In this document: piece after piece, positions 1-46,244 of the stretch | Numbering within the stretch: position 1 is the stretch's first letter | Layout of the letters: each line of letters starts with the position of its first letter | Virus record (IMG/VR): IMGVR_UViG_3300044949_001400 | Location: 1-46,244 of that record | From: a virus | DNA: 46,244 nt | Reading direction: 5' to 3' (one strand) | Position numbers and translations under genes: made by a program | The notes under the pieces: generated by a model | The model's database searches: none | Seen by the model: the letters and a program-made list of their open reading frames with translations, nothing else | Told to the model about the DNA's origin: nothing

Positions 1-127
1 CGCCCTGGGGCCCCGCCGAGTTCTGGGAATGCCACGCCGGCCTGAGAGACGTTCCGGATTGGCTGGCCCCAGCCCCCGCCAATCCGGCGCCGCTGCTCAG
101 CGCGGATCAGGCTGCGGAGCTGTGCGC
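1..127. repeat. Left copy of the 127-bp terminal direct repeat
   Basis: These 127 bases are identical to positions 46118-46244. An open reading frame starting at 45799 continues in frame across the join, so the two ends overlap on a circular or circularly permuted molecule. The unit length is therefore 46,117 bp. A length of exactly 127 matches a common largest assembly k-mer, so the repeat is more likely an assembly overlap than a biological terminal repeat (inference). Confidence 0.95.
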
Positions 128-1622: not shown

Positions 1623-2294
1623 ATGCCTATCGAAATCAACGAATCAGCTAACTACGTTAGCTATCCTATTATTAAGCATCGGAATATTGGCGAATACTGC
1701 CGGCTGGCGGTGATTCGCTGGGAGCAGCGTGCTCAGCTCAAGAACGACCCCAGCACTGGGCAAATGGTCAAGGTCCCCAACGGCATGGATCGCGACAATC
1801 ATCCAAAATACAAACAAGAGCTTGTAATTCATGCTATTGCTGTCAACGGCAACATGCAGGCCGCCATCGGCGATGCATCGGGCATACCTGCTAGCGGCGA
1901 TCGCGTCAGGGTGATTCTTAAAGCTAAGGCATTTGGCGACTGGATTGAGCAACGCAAACTTCACAGGGGCGGCAAGTTTCATGTTGGCGATCTTCTCGAA
2001 CTTGAGACCACACACGCCCAGCAGTACGACCAAAACGGCGCCCCCAAAGGCGCCGAGATCAAAGATCATGCAATTGCAGCGGCTGTGCCCAGGGGCGTGA
2101 CCCTGGGCTTCTATGGCACGCTGACGCTATCTGCCGGCACCGATCCCCAGGCCATTGCAGCCGCAGAGGCCGCGTATCACGCCGATGAAGAGGCCAAACG
2201 GCAGCGCAGCGCTGTGCAGCTGCCTCCTATGGATGGCGGCTTCAACGACGAATTCGGCGGCATTCAGAGCCCTGCCGAGGTGGAAGGATGGTAG
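1623..2294 (+). CDS. Hypothetical protein, possible ssDNA-binding-type fold
   Basis: A 223-residue protein. The first 165 residues contain alternating strands (RDNHPKYKQELVIHAIAVNG, a GDRVRVILKAKAFG segment, GDLLELETTHAQQYDQNG) separated by loops, consistent with an OB-fold or similar beta-barrel. The C-terminus is a charged helix followed by a disordered acidic tail ending FNDEFGGIQSPAEVEGW. A beta-barrel plus an acidic flexible tail is the layout of many phage single-stranded-DNA-binding proteins, but I see no diagnostic signature, so this is a weak inference. The local base composition is more AT-rich than in neighbouring genes. It overlaps the sigma gene by seven bases. Confidence 0.6.
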   Translation: MPIEINESANYVSYPIIKHRNIGEYCRLAVIRWEQRAQLKNDPSTGQMVKVPNGMDRDNHPKYKQELVIHAIAVNGNMQAAIGDASGIPASGDRVRVILKAKAFGDWIEQRKLHRGGKFHVGDLLELETTHAQQYDQNGAPKGAEIKDHAIAAAVPRGVTLGFYGTLTLSAGTDPQAIAAAEAAYHADEEAKRQRSAVQLPPMDGGFNDEFGGIQSPAEVEGW

Positions 2295-3148
2295 CCGCAG
2301 ACTGCGCCACGTTCTGGCGCGACCAGGCGGGTCGAGTGCCGCTGCTCACCACCGATGAGGAACTGCACCTGGGCCGCCTAGTGCGGCAATGGCAGGACTG
2401 GCCTGGCGGTCCAGAGGCTGCCCCGTCCAAGGTGCAGCGCAGCGGGCGCAAGGCCAGAGATCGAATGGTGTCCGCCAACCTACGGCTAGTTATTTCGTAT
2501 GTTGGCAAAAAAATCCCCCACCTGGGGGAACACGTTACTCAAGCTGATTTCCCAGACATACTGCAGCAATGCGCTATTGGCTTGATCACTGGCGCTAACA
2601 AATTTGACCCCGAACGCGGATACAAGTTTTCGACCTACGCTTATTGGTGGGTGCGCCAAGCCGTCGCCCGCTGGCGCGATAACGATTCGCGAGCAATCAG
2701 GCTGCCGCAGAACAAGGCCACTTTGTCGGCCAGGGCTATGGCTATGCGTGAATTGCTCGCCAGGCAGCTAGGCCGCAGTCCATCGGCTGCGGAACTGGCG
2801 GCGGCACTGGAGATCGACATAGAGGTGATTGAGGTGCTGCTGGCTGTTGGGCCATGCCCCATCAGTTTGGACGCGCAATGCCGCAACGCCGACTCTGAGA
2901 TCACGCTGGTAGAGATGATCACCGCACCCGAGCCCAAGCCGCGCGATCCGCTGATCGATGAACTGCCCAGGCTGCTAGCGCGGCTAAACGAGCGCTCGCG
3001 CAGCTTGCTGGTTTTTTACTACGGCCTAGGCGAAAGCAAGGCGATGAGTTTCGCTCAAATTGGCAAAATAATGAATCTGTCTCGAAGCAGGGTAAGTCAA
3101 CTGATTGCAGTTGCACATCAGGAGCTGCGGCGGGAGGTGGAGGCGTGA
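2288..3148 (+). CDS. Phage-encoded RpoD-like sigma-70 family factor
   Basis: A 286-residue sigma factor with all DNA-contacting regions. Region 1.2-like sequence spans residues 8-35 (FWRDQAGRVPLLTTDEE, typical of cyanobacterial sigmas). Region 2 spans about 55-130 (NLRLVISYV, then FDPERGYKFSTYAYWWVRQA, the core-binding and -10-melting part). Region 3 spans about 138-190 and region 4 about 225-286, with the HTH AQIGKIMNLSRSRVSQLI. It should bind host core RNA polymerase and redirect it to promoters with related -10/-35 elements. GAGGTGG followed by GAAGG precedes the ATG. It sits in the early operon directly before thyX. Sigma factors of this full 1.2-to-4 form are more usual on host chromosomes, so an origin by capture from a cyanobacterium is likely. 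The family assignment is firm; the regulon is unknown. Confidence 0.93.
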   Translation: MVAADCATFWRDQAGRVPLLTTDEELHLGRLVRQWQDWPGGPEAAPSKVQRSGRKARDRMVSANLRLVISYVGKKIPHLGEHVTQADFPDILQQCAIGLITGANKFDPERGYKFSTYAYWWVRQAVARWRDNDSRAIRLPQNKATLSARAMAMRELLARQLGRSPSAAELAAALEIDIEVIEVLLAVGPCPISLDAQCRNADSEITLVEMITAPEPKPRDPLIDELPRLLARLNERSRSLLVFYYGLGESKAMSFAQIGKIMNLSRSRVSQLIAVAHQELRREVEA

Positions 3149-3876
3149 ACATGGACCCTCGCTTCCGGGTTGACCTGATCGCCGCCACCCCCAACCCCCA
3201 GCAGTGCATCTACGCGGCGATGCACCAGGACTACAGCGAGGGCTACGTGGTGGACGACCGCGCCAACTGGCCTGAGGAAAGCCGCGCTGGCGAGATCTGC
3301 GTGAGGCGGTTATTGGCGGGCGAGCGCGGCCACTACGGGTGCTTAGAGCATCCCCAGATTACTCTTAATGTGGGCTGGTTTCCCCATTCCGTTATGCAGC
3401 AGGCCCGTACCCATCGGGTCGGGGTTTCGTTCGATGTGCAGAGTCTACGCTATACGGGGGGAAGGATAATCGATTACGTGTTAGGCGAGCGCGATTTTGA
3501 AGAAGTGTTCTACCTGCGACCCGTGGGTAACTACAGCGATCGGCAAGGTAAGAAATACTGCTACAAGGCACATCAGCGAGCTGCCGATAAAGAGCTTTGT
3601 ACGAGTGCTGCGCTTCGCTATGCCAGACTAATTGAAGATGGTTTTGCCGAAGAGCACGCCCGCAGTATCCTGCCCTTTGACGTGCGCCAGCACTTCGTAG
3701 TGAGCTTCAGCCTGCGGGCCTTCCTGCACTTCCTCGACCTGCGGGCCAAGCTCGATGCCCAGGACGAAATTCGCCAGCTCTGCGATTTGATGTGGCCCCA
3801 CCTACAGAGTTGGGCGCCAGAGATCGCCGCCTGGTATCACCAGCACCGCTGGGCTAAAGCGAGGCTGGCGCCGTGA
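3145..3876 (+). CDS. thyX: Flavin-dependent thymidylate synthase ThyX
   Basis: A 243-residue enzyme that methylates dUMP to dTMP using methylenetetrahydrofolate and FAD with NADPH. The ThyX signature is present at residues 88-103 as RTHRVGVSFDVQSLRY, a cyanobacterial-type variant of the RHR-x7-S motif. The downstream block (SILPFDVRQH, then LRAFLHFLDLR, then a conserved AQDEIRQL) matches the substrate and FAD-binding half. The ATG overlaps the sigma gene stop (GTGA-type overlap) and the gene itself overlaps the next one, so all three are likely co-translated. ThyX is frequent in cyanophages and supports high dTMP demand during replication. A thymidylate kinase at 40617 provides the next step of the same pathway. 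Confidence 0.95.
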   Translation: MNMDPRFRVDLIAATPNPQQCIYAAMHQDYSEGYVVDDRANWPEESRAGEICVRRLLAGERGHYGCLEHPQITLNVGWFPHSVMQQARTHRVGVSFDVQSLRYTGGRIIDYVLGERDFEEVFYLRPVGNYSDRQGKKYCYKAHQRAADKELCTSAALRYARLIEDGFAEEHARSILPFDVRQHFVVSFSLRAFLHFLDLRAKLDAQDEIRQLCDLMWPHLQSWAPEIAAWYHQHRWAKARLAP

Positions 3877-4460: not shown

Positions 4461-5230
4461 CTAAACCCGCCTGGTTCACACAGCTAGAACATGACCTGAA
4501 CGCTCCTTTGGAGCCGGATGGTGCGGCAATCGACTGGGATCGGTGCCGAGATCTATTTCTGATTTCACTGCTCCAGCGTCTGGAGAAGCGCTCCAACAGC
4601 CCGCACCCTGCCATCGTGCGCGGGCTGCTGCAGCGGCGTTTCGCGGGCGAAGATGTGACGGCTGCGCTATCCGCCGCCCCCACCTGGGCCGCCGCCTGGG
4701 TCGCCGCCACCGCCAGCGCCACCTGGCCCGTCGCCGTCTGGGCCGCCGCCTTGGCCGAACCCACCGCCCCCGAACGCGCCACATGGGCCGCCTGGGCCGC
4801 CCGGGCCGCCGCCTTGGCCGAACGCACTGCCGCCGACGCCGAACGCGCCGACCAGTTGGCCGACCTGCGAGCAGCCGTGGCCGCGTCTACCCAGCAGCCA
4901 GCGCTGCCAGACGGCTACATCGTGCCAACCCCGGTCGATCTAGCTGCGCTGCATGATCCCACGTTTTCGGATGGGCTAACACCATCCCAGCTTCTAGATG
5001 TTCTGCGCGGTGGGCCAGATCCTCGGGTGTTGATTTCAATTGTGGCGCCCACCTCCCCCGCCGGCTCGCTGGTGGAGCGGGTGGCGGGAAGCATTTGGAA
5101 AACCTGCGACCTGGAGATAGAAGCCCGCGCCGCGATCCTTGAGGTGGCGGCTTGGCTCACCGAGAACTACGCATCAGACGTGGTTGGCCCCTCGCCCCAC
5201 CAGATGCTGCGCGACGAGGCCAACCGATGA
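4457..5230 (+). CDS. Ala/Trp-repeat protein of unknown function
   Basis: A 257-residue protein of three parts. Residues 1-68 are a globular helical start (WFTQLEHDLNAPL, DRCRDLFLISLLQRLEKR). Residues about 70-125 are a low-complexity repeat of W-A-A-A-like units interspersed with Glu, Arg and Thr. Residues about 150-257 form a second globular region (LTPSQLLDVLRGGPDPRVLISIVAP, then EARAAILEVAAWLTENY). The repeat is encoded by imperfect GCC-rich tandem DNA near 4676-4830, so expansion and contraction are likely. The Trp/Ala pattern would make an amphipathic helical repeat, possibly membrane-active or oligomerising. I do not recognise the family. The start overlaps the previous gene and the stop overlaps the next (ATGA). 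Confidence 0.7.
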   Translation: MTKPAWFTQLEHDLNAPLEPDGAAIDWDRCRDLFLISLLQRLEKRSNSPHPAIVRGLLQRRFAGEDVTAALSAAPTWAAAWVAATASATWPVAVWAAALAEPTAPERATWAAWAARAAALAERTAADAERADQLADLRAAVAASTQQPALPDGYIVPTPVDLAALHDPTFSDGLTPSQLLDVLRGGPDPRVLISIVAPTSPAGSLVERVAGSIWKTCDLEIEARAAILEVAAWLTENYASDVVGPSPHQMLRDEANR

Positions 5231-28567: not shown

Positions 28568-30445
28568 TCACCGCTTCCAACCAGCAAGGGACAGGCCGCC
28601 GCCAACTGACTGGCCGGCCCGCACCTGCGCTTCCAGTTGATCCCACATCGTCGCCCGGTTGTAGCGGCGGGCAACCAGCTGCAGCGCCGCATAGGCCATC
28701 CTGGTGCAGTCGCCGGCCTCATCGCGGGAGCCGTTGGGGAGTACCCAGCTGTAGGTAGTCTGGCCGTTGTGCCGTTTGGGCATGCGTTTCCACGGGAACA
28801 GCTCCGCCAGGAACTGATCAGTCGAGGCCTCACCAAAATGCAAATAGCCGGGGCCTGGCTGTTCGTTGCGCAGACGGCCCTGTAGGTGGTTGATGCTGGC
28901 GTCGTAGCCGATGCCATAGAGCAGCACGCCCTTTTTCACGATGCCTTGGTTCTTGCGGTTGACATCCACGGCGACACCTTTCCCGAGCAGCGGCTTGCCC
29001 TTCTGAGGGGCCCCTTTCATCGGCACCCAGTTGGCAGTGCGGCCCCGGCACCAGTCGCGCACCTCATGAGTGGCATAGCCGCCGTCGTCAATGCCGCCCA
29101 TCGCCAGCCGCATCTCTGCGCCATCGGCCCTGACCCACTTGGTTTTGGCGATCTGATCCAGCTGCGCCAGCGTCTCGGGTTGCTGCGGGTCGCCATCGAT
29201 CTCCCAGTGGCCCAGGTGCCAGCCCTCTTCACCACGGCCCCAGCCCCATACCGTCACCACCAACCGCTCGCCTGAGGTGCCGCCGCCGCCCTGCACGTCA
29301 ACGCCAGCGGTGATCAGCAGCACGCCATCTGGCACCGTGCCAGCCGGGTAGCCGTTGCCGGCGGTTTCGTTCTTGCGGCGCTCGGCCAGGCCGTCGCCGG
29401 TCAATTTGCTGGAGATCGAATCCTCCCAGGGCAGCCCTAGCACGGTGTTGTGATAGGTCTGCATTGCATCAGGGTCGCCCTTGCGCATTGCCTCCAGGGC
29501 CTCGGCGTGCTCGCGCACCAGCACGGGCCAGCTCGCCGCTGGGGAATAGCTGTAGGCGGCCCAGATGTGGAAGCTCACCAGGCCTGGCTGCTGGCTAACA
29601 GCCGTGGGGCGCCACTCGCCGCGCTCCACCATCCACCGTTTTTTGCTGTGGGGGATCGGCTCGGCGCAGTTTTCACACCCGTAGTGGCCGGCGTGCTCGC
29701 CCTCGCGAATCATCTGCTCCCAGCGCAACACCTGCATCACCTGGCAGAACGGACACGGCACGAAATAGCGCCGTTGGTCGCCCCTCAGGAACCATTCCTC
29801 GGTTTTGCCACCCTTAAAAATTGGAGTGCCGCCTAGGCCGATCTTGCGATCCCAGTAATAATCGGCCCTGTTGCGGCCTAACTTGATCGGATCGCCTTCA
29901 TCGAGCTTGGGGTAGGCGTCCACCTCATCAAACAGCACAACCTTGCGGCTTTTGCGTCGGAAACTGCGACCGCTGGCAGCGTTCACAATGTCAATCAAGC
30001 CGCCGTTGCTCAGCTGCTTTAACAGAATCGTGTTGCTGACTGTATTGCGAGCTTTGCTTTCGGAGATTAGGCCACGCAGGCAGGGCGTATCTTGAAACAA
30101 GTCCTTAATTTCTTCTTTGCTATAGCCCTCTGCGTCTTCTTTGACCGGCTGCACAATCATCACGGGGCATGGATCCTGATGGCTGAACAGCTGAATCACC
30201 ACGCCCAACATCTTTGTCCAGCCAATTCGAGCGCTCTTCATAATCGCCACCGTCTCCACAGCTGGGTCGGTGAAGGCGTCGAGGATCTCGCGCTGATAGG
30301 GGAGCGTGTTCCACCGCCCCTTCTCAGCAGCGTTGCCGGTCATCACCGCAAACTTGTCGGCGTACTCGCTCAGCCGCAACCGTGGCGGCGGCTTGAGGCC
30401 GGCCAGGATCTGCCTGGTGAGTTCGGCCGGATCGGCGGTGATCAT
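28568..30445 (-). CDS. terL: Terminase large subunit (lambda gpA-like)
   Basis: A 625-residue packaging motor and nuclease of the GpA type. The Walker A-like motif MKSARIGWTK is at residues 69-78, Walker B LFDEVDAYP is at 171-179, and the region around residues 245-275 carries a CPFCQ...CENC zinc-finger-like pair (PCPFCQVMQVL and YGCENCAEP). The nuclease half begins near residue 380 (ITAGVDVQGG). GpA-type terminases generally cut at cos sites, giving genomes with cohesive ends. Start overlaps the methylase gene. Confidence 0.95.
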   Translation of the reverse strand: MITADPAELTRQILAGLKPPPRLRLSEYADKFAVMTGNAAEKGRWNTLPYQREILDAFTDPAVETVAIMKSARIGWTKMLGVVIQLFSHQDPCPVMIVQPVKEDAEGYSKEEIKDLFQDTPCLRGLISESKARNTVSNTILLKQLSNGGLIDIVNAASGRSFRRKSRKVVLFDEVDAYPKLDEGDPIKLGRNRADYYWDRKIGLGGTPIFKGGKTEEWFLRGDQRRYFVPCPFCQVMQVLRWEQMIREGEHAGHYGCENCAEPIPHSKKRWMVERGEWRPTAVSQQPGLVSFHIWAAYSYSPAASWPVLVREHAEALEAMRKGDPDAMQTYHNTVLGLPWEDSISSKLTGDGLAERRKNETAGNGYPAGTVPDGVLLITAGVDVQGGGGTSGERLVVTVWGWGRGEEGWHLGHWEIDGDPQQPETLAQLDQIAKTKWVRADGAEMRLAMGGIDDGGYATHEVRDWCRGRTANWVPMKGAPQKGKPLLGKGVAVDVNRKNQGIVKKGVLLYGIGYDASINHLQGRLRNEQPGPGYLHFGEASTDQFLAELFPWKRMPKRHNGQTTYSWVLPNGSRDEAGDCTRMAYAALQLVARRYNRATMWDQLEAQVRAGQSVGGGLSLAGWKR

Positions 30446-32021: not shown

Positions 32022-32118
32022 TCAGAGCCTTGTCACACCTTTGTCACATCATTCTAGGTTGTGACAAGAATGTGACAGGGGAGGGGGATCGTGTGCCCCG
32101 TGGCCGGCCCTTGTCACA
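32022..32118. promoter_or_regulatory. TTGTCACA site array upstream of terS (cos/pac or operator candidate)
   Basis: Sites TTGTCACA at 32030-32037 and 32041-32048 are 11 bases apart. The inverted sites TGTGACAA at 32060-32067 and TGTGACAG at 32071-32078 are also 11 apart. The four are exactly symmetric about position 32054. A fifth site, TTGTCACA, lies at 32111-32118. The spacing of one helical turn and the dyad suggest a multimeric DNA-binding protein. The site lies where lambda has cosB. It may equally be an operator for terS. Confidence 0.6.
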
Positions 32119-39738: not shown

Positions 39739-39835
39739 AGAATGGGCGACGAGCGTCGCCGCCAAGGCGGAGTTAGTTCAGCATATAGTTAACCACGCCC
39801 GCAAAACTTCGCCCACCACCACCCCGCTCACATGA
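39674..39835 (+). pseudogene. Remnant of a gene interrupted by the tmk fragment
   Basis: Downstream of the break the sequence shifts to another frame, open to the TGA at 39833-39835, encoding [20 protein letters not shown], then EEWATSVAAKAELVQHIVNHARKT. This has the composition of a real C-terminal protein segment and is not related to tmk. Its 5' part is missing, so it is the tail of a gene whose start was replaced. The function is not recognisable. Confidence 0.5.
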
Positions 39836-40620
39836 CTCCCACTCCCACCACCCCACCTTTTGATCTGCCAGAGGTTCTGCGACTGCATGTGTTGTGGCAT
39901 CAAGGCGACCCAGGCGGCCGCCGCGCCGATCTGGCCGGAGCGAATCTGGCCAGATTCGCTCTGGCCGGAACGAATCTGGCCAGAGCGAATCTGGCCGGAG
40001 CGGACCTGACCTACGCGAACCTGGCCGGCGCGAAACTGGCCGGAACGAAACTGGCCGGAGCGGACCTGACCTACGCGAACCTGGCCGGCGCGAAACTGGC
40101 CGTAGCGAATCTGGCCGACGCGGACCTGGCCGGAACGAATCTGGCCAGAGCGAATCTGGCCAACGCGGACCTGGCCGGAACGAATCTGGCCGGAGCGAAT
40201 CTGGCCGACGCGGACCTGGCCGGAACGAATCTGGCCAGAGCCAATCTGGCCGGAACGAATCTGGCCGGAGCGGACCTGACCTACGCGAACCTGGCCGGCG
40301 CGAAACTGGCCGGCGCAATTGGTCTGCATATTGCCAGCGACGCACCAACGCGGCTGCTGGCTGTGGCACGCGCCGCTCTTGCATCGGATAACGCATTGGA
40401 GATGCGCCGCTGGCACACCTGCAGTACTACCCACTGCATCAGCGGATGGGCAGAGTATTTAGGAGGGCCCAGCGCTACATTATTGTATCAGAAAATGGGG
40501 CCTGGCATTGCAGGGCTAATGCTGCTGGGGATAGAAGCACATAGCTATTTTTATGCGTCTAACGAAAAAGCTCGGGCTTTTTTGCAATCGGTTGTTGACA
40601 ACGCGGAGGCCTCCCAGTGA
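39832..40620 (+). CDS. Pentapeptide-repeat protein with C-terminal phage domain
   Basis: A 262-residue protein. Residues about 32-155 are A(D/N)LxG pentapeptide repeats (units such as ADLAG, TNLAR, ANLAG) that form a right-handed quadrilateral beta-helix. The C-terminal domain begins around residue 165 (ASDAPTRLLAVARAALAS) with the block MRRWHTCSTTHCISGWAEYLGG and LLLGIEAHSYFY-like segments, a domain seen in phage and cyanobacterial proteins. The DNA repeat unit is about 15 bp (CTGGCCGGAGCGAAT-type) over 39937-40316. The gene overlaps tmk as GTGA. Pentapeptide proteins may mimic DNA; the function here is unknown. Confidence 0.85.
   Translation: MTPTPTTPPFDLPEVLRLHVLWHQGDPGGRRADLAGANLARFALAGTNLARANLAGADLTYANLAGAKLAGTKLAGADLTYANLAGAKLAVANLADADLAGTNLARANLANADLAGTNLAGANLADADLAGTNLARANLAGTNLAGADLTYANLAGAKLAGAIGLHIASDAPTRLLAVARAALASDNALEMRRWHTCSTTHCISGWAEYLGGPSATLLYQKMGPGIAGLMLLGIEAHSYFYASNEKARAFLQSVVDNAEASQ
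39937..40316 (+). repeat. 15-bp tandem repeats coding for pentapeptides
   Basis: Degenerate CTGGCCGGAGCGAAT-like units encode the pentapeptide helix. They span about 380 bp, in phase with the reading frame, and remain prone to length change by recombination. Confidence 0.85.
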
Positions 40621-41285
40621 CCACCACTCCAACCCCACCCCGTGGCCGCTTCATCGTCCTGGAGGGCATCGACGGCTCTGGCAAGACCACGCTGCTGGAG
40701 GCGCTGGCCGCTTGGCTGCCCACCAGCGGCCTGATGCCACCAGGTGCCGAGCTGATCACCACTCGTGCACCGGGCGGCACGGCCCTGGGTCAGCGCCTGC
40801 GTGAGCTGCTGCTGCATCCGCCAGATGATGCCAAACCATGCCCAATTGCCGAGCTGCTGCTGTACGTCGCCGACACCGCCCAGCTGTGCTCCCAGGTCGT
40901 CGAGCCAGCCCTAGCGGCGGGGCACTGGGTGCTCTGCGATCGATTCACAGGTTCGACTGTGGCCTACCAGGGCTATGGCCGTGGCCATGATCTGGAAGTA
41001 ATCAGGCGGCTCAACATGCTGGCGGCTGAAAGCTTGGAGCCCGATCTCACCATCTGGCTAGACTTGTCCCCGGCCGACGCACTGCAGCGCCGCAGCAATC
41101 GCCCTGCCGATCGCATCGAGCGGGCTGGAGAGGGCTTTCTAGGCCGAGTGAAGCTCGGATACGGCGACCTGTACGTGGAATCCCTCAACTGGCGTTACTG
41201 CAGCGCTAATGCGCCATTAGCGCAGGTCACCAAATTTTGCCAGCAGAGGTTGCGGGCAAGATTTGGTGCAGATGCCACCCCGTAA
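40617..41285 (+). CDS. tmk: Thymidylate kinase
   Basis: A 222-residue dTMP kinase with a GTG start overlapping the upstream stop (GTGA). The P-loop GIDGSGKT is at residues 17-24, the nucleoside-binding CDRFTGSTVAYQGYGRG is around 98-115, and the LID-type segment RPADRIERAGEGFLGRV follows. It phosphorylates dTMP to dTDP, the step after ThyX. The 105-bp fragment at 39568 duplicates its start. It probably raises the dTTP supply for phage DNA synthesis. The family is certain. Confidence 0.95.
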   Translation: MTTTPTPPRGRFIVLEGIDGSGKTTLLEALAAWLPTSGLMPPGAELITTRAPGGTALGQRLRELLLHPPDDAKPCPIAELLLYVADTAQLCSQVVEPALAAGHWVLCDRFTGSTVAYQGYGRGHDLEVIRRLNMLAAESLEPDLTIWLDLSPADALQRRSNRPADRIERAGEGFLGRVKLGYGDLYVESLNWRYCSANAPLAQVTKFCQQRLRARFGADATP

Positions 41286-43767: not shown

Positions 43768-44142
43768 CTAAGCCGTTTGCGCATACATTGCCAGCAATTG
43801 TTTTTTGGATATTTTCCGCTTAGTCCCCACCAACTGCATCAGCTGCCGAGTAGAGAGCTGAGCAATTTCTACCGGGGCCTGCACTGGCGCCATGAGCTGC
43901 GGCTGCGGTGGCTGCTGTGGCGCTGGCTCAACTGCTGTGGGCTCTTCGACCGTTGCCGTGGGCTTCAACCCCAGTGCGGCGACGTGGGCGGCACCCAGCT
44001 GAGTGCTGGTGCGATGGACCCAGAGGCCTAGGCAATAGCCCAGGGTGTAGGTAAATGCGATGGCTTTTACAATTGCTTGGCCAACGTCGTGCCAGTTGAT
44101 TTGATCAATGAAATCGATTGTTGAATTGATGAACTTTTTCAT
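43768..44142 (-). CDS. Small accessory membrane protein B (124 residues)
   Basis: The likely start is the ATG at 44142 next to the conserved leader; longer starts run into the integrase upstream sequence. The protein has an amphipathic start (KKFINSTIDFIDQINWHDV), a membrane segment (IVKAIAFTYTLGYCLGLWV), a Pro/Glu-rich linker and a C-terminal SAP/Rho-N-like segment (IAQLSTRQLMQLVGTKRKISKKQLLAMYAQ). The last part resembles nucleic-acid-binding helices. No family is certain. The leader and hairpin are shared with the gene at 43107-43292. Confidence 0.7.
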   Translation of the reverse strand: MKKFINSTIDFIDQINWHDVGQAIVKAIAFTYTLGYCLGLWVHRTSTQLGAAHVAALGLKPTATVEEPTAVEPAPQQPPQPQLMAPVQAPVEIAQLSTRQLMQLVGTKRKISKKQLLAMYAQTA

Positions 44143-44200
44143 TTTTTTGTGGGGGTTGTGGAGGTCTCCCTCCTTGAGATCACAGTAATCCATGCGTGAC
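44143..44200 (-). promoter_or_regulatory. Conserved leader of accessory gene B
   Basis: On the minus strand: GTCACGCATGG, TACTGT (44187-44182), AAGGAGG, a GGAGG-GAGA-CCTCC hairpin, then ACAACCCCCACAAAAAAATG. It matches the leader of the 43107-43292 gene with small changes. Confidence 0.65.
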
Positions 44201-44247
44201 ATGATCCGCAAGGGGGTTGTGTGACACTTTAGGGATTGGCACATCAC

Positions 44248-44297
44248 GTATGCCCTGGCGTACACCACGGCGAGGGCTGGTGTACACCAGGGCATAC
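44248..44297. other. Candidate attP (50-bp inverted repeat before the integrase)
   Basis: Left arm GTATGCCCTGGCGTACACCA (44248-44267) and right arm 44278-44297 are inverted copies with one mismatch, separated by ten bases (44268-44277); the symmetric centre is at GA (44272-44273). Size, arm layout and location directly before a large serine integrase fit an attP site with a central crossover dinucleotide. It may also be an operator of the integrase gene. Confidence 0.7.
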
Positions 44298-44305
44298 TGG
44301 GCCCT

Positions 44306-45592
44306 ATGGACCACCTTCTCTCTGTCGCCTACGGCCGAGTCAGCACCGCCAGCGGCGAACAGCTGGCTGCCCTCGACGTGCAACTGGCCTGGCTCCAGGC
44401 GCAGGGGCCCGACGTGATCCTCTCTGACGTGGAATCCGGCCGAGTAGTGGCCAGGCCCAACTACCAGCAGCTGCGGGCGATGGTTGCCGCCGGCAGGGTG
44501 CGACTGGTGTTGGCAACGGCCCTCAGCCGGCTAGGCCGGGACGCAGCAGAGAGCGATGCGTTCATCCGCCTCTGCGATGACCACGGCGCCCAGGTCCTGA
44601 CACGGGACGATGGCCAGCTCACCATGGCCACGCCAGAGGATCTGCTGTTGACCCGGTTGAAGGGCTCGATCAGCCAGGGCGAGAGCATGCGCCTTAGCCA
44701 GCGGGTGAGGGGCGGCCTGGCCCAGGGCCGGGCATTGGGTAAACCCATGCGGGCCGCCTGTTGGGGGTATCAATTACGAGCCGATCGCACAGCATTCGAG
44801 CCGCACCCAACCGAGTTCAACAGGGCGGCGCAGTTTGTCGCCCACCTGCAGGCCAGCAGCTGGCGCATGTCGACCACCCTGCGCCAGCATCGGGACCTGT
44901 GCCCCTTCAGCAGCTGCCGCGCGGTGAGGGCCTGGCTGCTCAATCCCACCCTGCGGGGCGGGGTTGGCTATCACCAGCGGCCCAACCACGGATTTGCCCA
45001 GATCACCTGGGGGCGCCATGAGGCGCTGCTCAGTCATGCCCAGTTTGCCGAGTTCGAGCGGCAGATTGAGGCCAACAAATTGCTGTGGGGGCACAATGCC
45101 ACGGTCATCCCCAGGCCGCTGACTGGGCTGGTGGAATGCAGCGAATGTGGCAATCGGTTGAAATATATCGGCGCTCGAACTGTCCCATCGCTGCGATGCG
45201 GAGGCACCCTGTGCAGTCAGATATACAAAGGCACTCGCGAGGATGTAATCATCCGCTACGCCATTGCCGCTGTGGCCGCATCAGCGGCTGAGCGATTGGC
45301 GGCGGCAGTGGGTGAGACCGAGCCGCCAGAGGCCGGCGAGCTGCGGCGATCGATTGCCGCGTTGGAGGCCCTGGGGGATCCTGAGCTGAAGCCCGTGATC
45401 GAGGCCAAGCGCGCGCGGCTGGAGGGGCTGCCCAGGGTCGAGCCCGTGGATCCGGGGCTCGTTCAGCGCATCAGCGACCCGCGGTGGTTCGACTCGCTGT
45501 CGCGCGATGAGCTGCGCGAGGTGCTGCGGGCGACGGTGGAGCGGATCGTTGTGACCAGACAGGTGCCGTCATCCATTCGCCTGAGGCTCTAG
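44306..45592 (+). CDS. Large serine recombinase (integrase)
   Basis: A 428-residue site-specific recombinase. The catalytic domain starts LSVAYGRVSTASGEQ (nucleophile Ser13), with the conserved Arg region ALSRLGRDAAE (Arg75, Arg78). A recombinase domain follows (RLSQRVRGGLAQGRALGK). A zinc ribbon near residues 278-305 carries CSECGNRLKY and RCGGTLC. A C-terminal coiled-coil and acidic/basic tail end the protein. Large serine integrases act on short attP and attB sites; the candidate attP lies nine bases upstream of its ATG. It makes the phage temperate. An excisionase is not recognised but could be one of the neighbouring small genes. Confidence 0.92.
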   Translation: MDHLLSVAYGRVSTASGEQLAALDVQLAWLQAQGPDVILSDVESGRVVARPNYQQLRAMVAAGRVRLVLATALSRLGRDAAESDAFIRLCDDHGAQVLTRDDGQLTMATPEDLLLTRLKGSISQGESMRLSQRVRGGLAQGRALGKPMRAACWGYQLRADRTAFEPHPTEFNRAAQFVAHLQASSWRMSTTLRQHRDLCPFSSCRAVRAWLLNPTLRGGVGYHQRPNHGFAQITWGRHEALLSHAQFAEFERQIEANKLLWGHNATVIPRPLTGLVECSECGNRLKYIGARTVPSLRCGGTLCSQIYKGTREDVIIRYAIAAVAASAAERLAAAVGETEPPEAGELRRSIAALEALGDPELKPVIEAKRARLEGLPRVEPVDPGLVQRISDPRWFDSLSRDELREVLRATVERIVVTRQVPSSIRLRL

Positions 45593-45798: not shown

Positions 45799-46244
45799 AT
45801 GCCGTTTCGGCATATTCGCGAGAATCAGGCGGACGCCGCCAGAGCGTTCGGCGCCATGCTGCGCAGGTGGCGTGGGGCCAATGGCTGGACTCAGTACACG
45901 GCCGCCAGGTGGGCCGATGAGAGCGGCCACCTGGGTATTTCCCACTCTGGGCTGTCTGAGTTGGAGAACGGCCTGACTCTGCATCCCAGGCTGGCCGTGT
46001 TCCTCGCACTGGCCGAACAGAACCAGCGCATCGCTGCCGGCGATTTCTCCGGAGTGCGGACTCGGGCTCTGTGCGATCAGCTCAATGGCAGCCTGCCTAT
46101 CACCCACCTAGACGGGACGCCCTGGGGCCCCGCCGAGTTCTGGGAATGCCACGCCGGCCTGAGAGACGTTCCGGATTGGCTGGCCCCAGCCCCCGCCAAT
46201 CCGGCGCCGCTGCTCAGCGCGGATCAGGCTGCGGAGCTGTGCGC
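45799..46244 (+). CDS. HTH regulator, 5' part (continues at position 1 to 425)
   Basis: The ATG at 45799 follows a GGAG ribosome-binding site seven bases upstream, with an in-frame stop at 45769. After joining the ends the protein is 247 residues. Residues about 10-65 look like an XRE-type helix-turn-helix: a GWTQ segment, then an Ala/Trp-rich helix, then SHSGLSELENG. This layout resembles phage and picocyanobacterial DNA-binding regulators. The middle of the protein (WGPAEFWECHAGLRDVP) is a distinct conserved-looking block of unknown role. It follows the integrase gene on the same strand and precedes the early operon, so a lysogeny repressor or early-gene regulator is a reasonable guess. A small dyad, CCAGT-n5-ACTGG at 45742-45756, lies in its upstream region and could be an operator. 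The function is inferred from the HTH and position only. Confidence 0.75.
   Translation, partial: MPFRHIRENQADAARAFGAMLRRWRGANGWTQYTAARWADESGHLGISHSGLSELENGLTLHPRLAVFLALAEQNQRIAAGDFSGVRTRALCDQLNGSLPITHLDGTPWGPAEFWECHAGLRDVPDWLAPAPANPAPLLSADQAAELC
46118..46244. repeat. Right copy of the 127-bp terminal direct repeat
   Basis: Identical to positions 1-127; see that entry. It lies inside the coding region of the HTH regulator that crosses the join, so it should be counted only once in the true genome. Confidence 0.95.

What the first reader, a model, noticed from the sequence alone, without database searches (positions are those of the whole stretch)
44248..44297. Candidate attP directly upstream of a large serine integrase
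A 50-bp inverted repeat (20-bp arms with one mismatch, ten-base centre, central dinucleotide GA) ends nine bases before the integrase ATG. This matches the usual place and size of serine-integrase attP sites. It would define the integration system of this phage, with a readable predicted crossover.
Basis: partly seen in the sequence, partly recalled or inferred. Interest (0 to 1): 0.75.

Follow-up and report, generated by a model that had tools for sequence, protein, structure and literature searches.

The report
Phage attachment site beside its integrase
A 50-base mirror-image DNA element just ahead of a phage's integrase gene is almost certainly the site where this freshwater cyanobacterial virus cuts and joins itself into its host's chromosome; related elements are found sitting in one particular host gene, so the predicted cut point is backed by comparative evidence.

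Summary
Window 44248-44297 holds an inverted repeat (20-bp arms, one mismatch, 10-bp centre, central GA), the strongest even-centred dyad in the window. The window is a complete circular phage genome (127-bp exact terminal repeat) related to freshwater Synechococcus phage S-LBS1. The adjacent gene encodes a 428-aa XisF-like serine integrase. Divergent relatives (52-66% identical) carry a matching site 25-50 bp before int. Their arms differ in sequence but stay inverted within each phage, and nearly all centre on GA. The pooled half-site (G2, GTG at 8-10, CGGG-n-TAYA at 16-24) has the recombinase-domain/zinc-domain layout of serine-integrase attP sites. Two Cyanobium MAGs carry an integrase relative (56% identical) right after a truncated M32 carboxypeptidase gene. 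Comparison with an empty copy puts the junction at ...GGGCCGA|, and the element-side half is in register with the attP consensus centred on GA. So attP and crossover are well supported. Not shown: recombination by this integrase, an integrated copy of this very phage, attR, or its RDF. M32 as this phage's own target is a prediction (shared core CGAGGGC). A new member of a known kind, linking cyanobacterial XisF-type recombinases to temperate phages.

The parts
44248..44297 (.). attP: 50-bp inverted repeat, half-sites 44248-44272 and 44273-44297
44272..44273 (+). predicted crossover (central) dinucleotide GA
   Evidence: dyad centre; GA in nearly all relatives with a site; host/element junction in two Cyanobium MAGs falls on GA
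44249..44257 (-). left zinc-domain motif (half-site positions 16-24), family consensus CGGGnTAYA
   Evidence: conserved columns; layout as in PMC3783163
44288..44296 (+). right zinc-domain motif (half-site positions 16-24), CAGGGCATA
   Evidence: conserved columns; layout as in PMC3783163
44263..44265 (-). left conserved inner GTG (positions 8-10), likely recombinase-domain contact
44280..44282 (+). right conserved inner GTG (positions 8-10), likely recombinase-domain contact
44306..45592 (+). XisF-like serine integrase, 428 aa (resolvase catalytic domain, recombinase domain, zinc ribbon C278/C281/C298/C303, short coiled coil)
43768..44142 (-). divergent small gene of unknown function; attP lies in the intergenic stretch 44143-44305
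1..127 (.). copy 1 of the exact 127-bp terminal repeat: contig is a closed circle of 46,117 bp
   Evidence: sibling L002 runs across the joint
46118..46244 (.). copy 2 of the exact 127-bp terminal repeat

Best explanation
44248-44297 is the attP of this phage. After the genome circularises, integrase dimers bind attP and a host attB. Each subunit places its recombinase domain on the inner half-site (GTG at 8-10) and its zinc domain on the outer motif (CGGGnTAYA at 16-24). Serine 13 makes a 2-bp staggered cut at the central GA, subunits rotate, and the ends are rejoined, giving attL and attR. In the prophage the int gene lies directly beside one junction. For relatives 56% identical the host site is the M32 carboxypeptidase gene, at codons DIHWA-E|G (CATTGGGCC-GA-GGG). 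The same site is the best guess for this phage because its attP core CGAGGGC is identical to that attB core. Shown here: the site, its conservation and arm matching, the integrase class, the free circular genome, and the junction position in relatives. Inferred: binding, chemistry, and this phage's own attB.
For: (1) The dyad is beyond chance. (2) In an unaided dyad search the best centre was GA at exactly -34 from the int start in L002, L004, L005, L010 and L012 (L003 has it at the same place, tied for best); GA was also best in L013 (-50), L017/L018 (-25) and L055 (-47). (3) The two halves match each other within a sequence better than across sequences: 151 matches against 125.3 (sd 6.5) under permutation, p=5e-5; without the two strongest sites p=0.01. 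L055 has a 17-bp perfect pair of arms of different sequence with the same CGCGAGC core. (4) Half-site columns sit at positions 8-10 and 16-24; the LI integrase attP half-site is 25 bp with its zinc-domain motif at 16-24 (PMC3783163). (5) A leave-window-out matrix puts 44272 first in the window, 28.7 against 8.3. (6) In L006 and L007 the int relative directly follows M32 truncated at GGGCCGA. G001 contig C65 (L052) has the same flank (114/115 identical before the junction) continuing into intact M32, and genus members keep M32 intact there. The element-side half is the best half-site of 14,944 positions in L006 and about fifth of 22,378 in L007, in the expected register. (7) The inner part of the M32 attB ranks high in an attP-derived matrix, first among GA centres in L052 and L048. 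(8) Fold matches over the full length are attL/attP/attB-bound serine integrases, E down to 3.9e-17.
Against: No integrated copy of this phage or its 94%-identical sibling was found. The integrated relatives are only 56% identical in int, sit at contig ends, and no attR was recovered. Phage genes other than int are not visible beside them. The shifted zinc-domain motif expected in attB is weak in M32. L014/L015 have no clear dyad by score (best-guess centre TG), and more distant relatives (L019, L022-L026) show no clear site. Some contigs used are fragments.
Confidence: 0.93

Rival explanations
1. The repeat is an operator: two tandem 12-bp palindromes (TGGCGTACACCA at 44256, TGGTGTACACCA at 44278, 22 bp apart) bound by a repressor that controls int and the divergent gene.
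For: Both 12-mers are near-perfect palindromes two helical turns apart in a divergent intergenic region. An attP this close to the int start could also let integrase shut off its own gene, so the two roles need not exclude each other.
Against: The internal 12-bp palindrome is not kept in relatives, whereas the 50-bp dyad around GA is. Other near-matches in the window lie inside genes. An operator would not explain the host/element junction on GA in the Cyanobium MAGs.
Confidence: 0.04
2. The repeat acts as an RNA hairpin in the int leader (translation control or terminator).
For: As RNA the region folds to -44.5 kcal/mol, z=-4.5.
Against: No terminator-like T run and no Rfam match. Most relatives have broken, weak stems of about 12-16 of 25 pairs, yet keep the spaced half-site motifs and the GA centre. 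Any strong DNA dyad would fold.
Confidence: 0.02
3. The site is attP, but this phage integrates elsewhere than the M32 carboxypeptidase gene (a rival to the target, not to the site).
For: int is only 56-57% identical to the integrases found in M32. Relatives with cores GCGAGCCTG, GCGAGCAAC or TG probably use other targets. No M32 fragment was found on any viral contig.
Against: The core CGAGGGC of this attP equals that of one Cyanobium attB (L052), and GAGGG is kept in the M32 genes checked.
Confidence: 0.5

Closest known systems
attP sites of large serine integrases (A118/LI, phiC31, Bxb1, TP901-1)
   Same: about 50 bp, two 25-bp inverted half-sites, non-palindromic central dinucleotide, outer zinc-domain motif at positions 16-24, next to the int gene
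   Different: arms more perfectly inverted than usual (own knowledge); motif sequence (GTG...CGGGnTAYA) is its own; target (for relatives) is an M32 carboxypeptidase gene
XisF and fdxN-type interruption elements of heterocyst-forming cyanobacteria
   Same: nearest named family for the integrase (NF041201, 183 bits); [quoted passage not shown]
   Different: below the XisF equivalog cut-off; carried by a complete tailed-phage genome; no XisH or XisI detected (those controls did not ring)
Synechococcus phage S-LBS1 (MG271909)
   Same: terminase large subunit 85% identical; freshwater picocyanobacterial siphovirus
   Different: S-LBS1 is reported to carry a lambda-like tyrosine integrase (PMC6157547), this phage a serine integrase
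Nodularia phage vB_NpeS-2AV2 Ser recombinase
   Same: closest full-length annotated isolate-phage hit to the integrase
   Different: only 22.7% identical

Membership tests
large serine integrase (LSR) | N-terminal resolvase domain with catalytic serine and arginines | tested here: met
   PF00239 E=2.5e-20; R11, S13, R75, R78 invariant in 22 relatives
large serine integrase (LSR) | C-terminal recombinase domain plus zinc ribbon with coiled coil | tested here: met
   C278, C281, C298, C303 invariant; model pLDDT 86.9; fold hits over the full length to LSR-att complexes, E 3.9e-17. Interdomain placement uncertain (pTM 0.45)
serine-integrase attP | about 50-bp pseudo-palindrome with non-palindromic central dinucleotide, adjacent to int | tested here: met
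serine-integrase attP | outer zinc-domain motif at half-site positions 16-24 and inner motif, conserved in relatives | tested here: met
   reference layout PMC3783163
serine-integrase attP | prophage junction falls on the central dinucleotide | tested here: inconclusive
   met for relatives 56% identical; no prophage of this phage found
serine-integrase attP | integrase recombines the site with attB | not testable with these tools
   needs a biochemical assay
XisF (fdxN element recombinase, NF041201) | score above the family cut-off | tested here: not met
   183 against 375 bits: XisF-like, not XisF
XisF (fdxN element recombinase, NF041201) | XisH and XisI partners on the element | tested here: inconclusive
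   none found in six phages, but the search rang in no control genome

The most novel reading that the evidence does not exclude
The phage is a live temperate relative of the XisF-type interruption elements of cyanobacteria. It inserts into a protein-coding gene (M32 carboxypeptidase) and could leave by precise excision, so that lysogeny reversibly switches that host gene off, as excisable elements do with nitrogen-fixation genes.
Probability: 0.2. Interest if true: 0.65.

Novelty: new member of a known kind. Interest (0 to 1): 0.45.

Why it matters
It gives a readable attP with an exact crossover prediction for a group of freshwater picocyanobacterial phages, and a host target gene for their near relatives, so lysogeny in Cyanobium/Synechococcus can be tested directly. 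It also ties XisF-like recombinases, known from gene-interrupting elements that have been suspected to be phage remnants (PMC4874684), to complete phage genomes. A compact 428-aa serine integrase with a clear attP and a candidate attB is a possible tool for cyanobacterial genetics.

Tried and rejected
Looked for the window's own prophage: viral contigs with either half-site returned only sibling L002; the integrase profile in about 400 genomes of the family and a similar draw of the order found only the two M32 insertions plus distant recombinases. Searched viral contigs for the free form of the L006/L007 element by its right half-site: none. Searched viral contigs for M32: none. Searched G001 and G002 for the M32 3' end to find attR: found an empty attB in G001 instead, nothing in G002. 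Operator, RNA hairpin and terminator readings examined and set aside. XisH/XisI not found, control silent. No RDF candidate identified. In one search the L007 line used a wrong junction (a chance GGGCCGAAG at 5156); one search corrects it.

Full report
OBSERVATION. Counting pairs outward from the centre it is the best even-centred dyad of the window (20 of 25). A higher odd-centred one (21 of 25, 39972) falls in the repetitive pentapeptide-repeat gene. 100 Markov genomes of the same composition reached at most 19.

CONTEXT. The contig has an exact 127-bp terminal repeat, so it is a closed 46,117-bp circle, and a 47.6-kb sibling (L002) runs across the joint. It is therefore a free phage genome with an intact attP, not a prophage cut out of a chromosome. 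It carries portal, head protease, terminase, tape measure, central tail fibre, primase/helicase, ThyX, thymidylate kinase and a sigma factor. Its terminase is 85% identical to freshwater Synechococcus phage S-LBS1.

INTEGRASE. ORF 44306-45592 is a serine recombinase (PF00239; PHROG integrase), nearest named family XisF but well below its cut-off. Catalytic residues and four zinc-ribbon cysteines are invariant in 22 relatives. A predicted model (pLDDT 86.9, pTM 0.45) matches DNA-bound large serine integrases over the full length.

COMPARATIVE TEST OF THE SITE. Relatives 52-66% identical were collected from viral contigs. The best dyad upstream of int centres on GA at exactly -34 in five of them (L002, L004, L005, L010, L012), with L003 showing it at the same place; it centres on GA in L013, L017/L018 and L055 at -50, -25 and -47. 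Individually most of these dyads are weak (shuffle p 0.04-0.85). The strength lies in the repeated position, the GA centre and the arm matching: left and right halves fit each other within a phage better than across phages (151 against 125.3, sd 6.5, p=5e-5; p=0.01 without window and L055). The choice of sites by best dyad or by the shared GA register favours pairing somewhat, so these p-values are optimistic. L055 is the cleanest independent case: 17-bp perfect arms of different sequence around CGCGAGC. The pooled half-site has G at 2, GTG at 8-10, CGGG at 16-19 and TAYA at 21-24. This is the layout described for the 25-bp LI attP half-site, with the zinc-domain motif at 16-24 (PMC3783163). 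A matrix from the relatives alone picks 44272 in the window, 28.7 against 8.3 for the runner-up.

INTEGRATED RELATIVES. Two Cyanobium MAGs from different projects, L006 (CALFOF010000376) and L007 (JAIXOF010000174), carry int relatives 97% identical to each other and 56-57% to the window's. In both, the integrase directly follows an M32 carboxypeptidase gene cut after ...GCLQDIHWAE (the name M32 carboxypeptidase rests on the recognisable sequence, HEWGH and DIHWAEGLFGYFPSY motifs, from my own knowledge). Genus members have that gene intact...TGGGC[C/A]GAGGG.... The L007 MAG itself also holds a contig (C65, L052) with the same 5' flank, 114 of 115 identical, that runs on into intact M32: the empty site. 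The sequences part right after GGGCCGA. The element-side half, counted from that GA, fits the attP half-site consensus: best of 14,944 positions in L006 and about fifth of 22,378 in L007, with no better score within three bases either way. The junction was fixed without use of the dyad, so this is an independent check of the GA crossover in the family.

TARGET OF THIS PHAGE. Its core CGAGGGC equals that of the C65 empty site, and the inner attB bases score well on the attP-derived matrix. The shifted zinc-domain motif is weak, and no prophage of this phage or of L002 was found. M32 is therefore a prediction at about even odds.

ALTERNATIVES. An operator reading rests on the 12-bp palindrome inside each arm, which relatives do not keep. 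An RNA-hairpin reading rests on a stable fold that most relatives could not form well. Integrase binding so near its own start codon may also repress int; that is compatible with attP.

STATUS. attP and crossover: strong comparative support, no biochemistry. Host site, attR and directionality factor: open. The kind of system is well known; the useful additions are the XisF-like phage group, its attP consensus and the M32 target of relatives.

Noticed in passing
window 1-127 and 46118-46244: Exact 127-bp direct terminal repeat: the record is a complete circular genome although the record class given did not flag end repeats.
   Followed up: yes
window 28568-30445 (-) and 44306-45592: Terminase 85% identical to S-LBS1, a phage reported to carry a tyrosine integrase, while this phage carries a serine integrase: an apparent swap of integration modules between close relatives.
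   Followed up: partly
L052 (G001:C65:1-1874) and L007: One Cyanobium MAG holds both an occupied and an empty M32 site (one SNP in the shared flank), suggesting a mixed population or strain variation.
   Followed up: partly
L026, L027 upstream of int: More distant XisF-like integrases have a different dyad (centre TA, about -81) with arms TCGCCTT...AAGGCGA; possibly another attP type.
   Followed up: no
L014, L015 upstream of int: Complete circular phages (127-bp terminal repeats) whose candidate site seems to centre on TG instead of GA; probably another target.
   Followed up: partly
window 39832-40620 and 2288-3145, 3145-3873, 40617-41285: Phage-borne pentapeptide-repeat protein, sigma-70 factor, ThyX and thymidylate kinase.
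   Followed up: no
window around 32054-32094: Further strong dyads (17-18 of 25) near 32054 (odd-centred) and 32094 in a gap between genes; unexplained.
   Followed up: no
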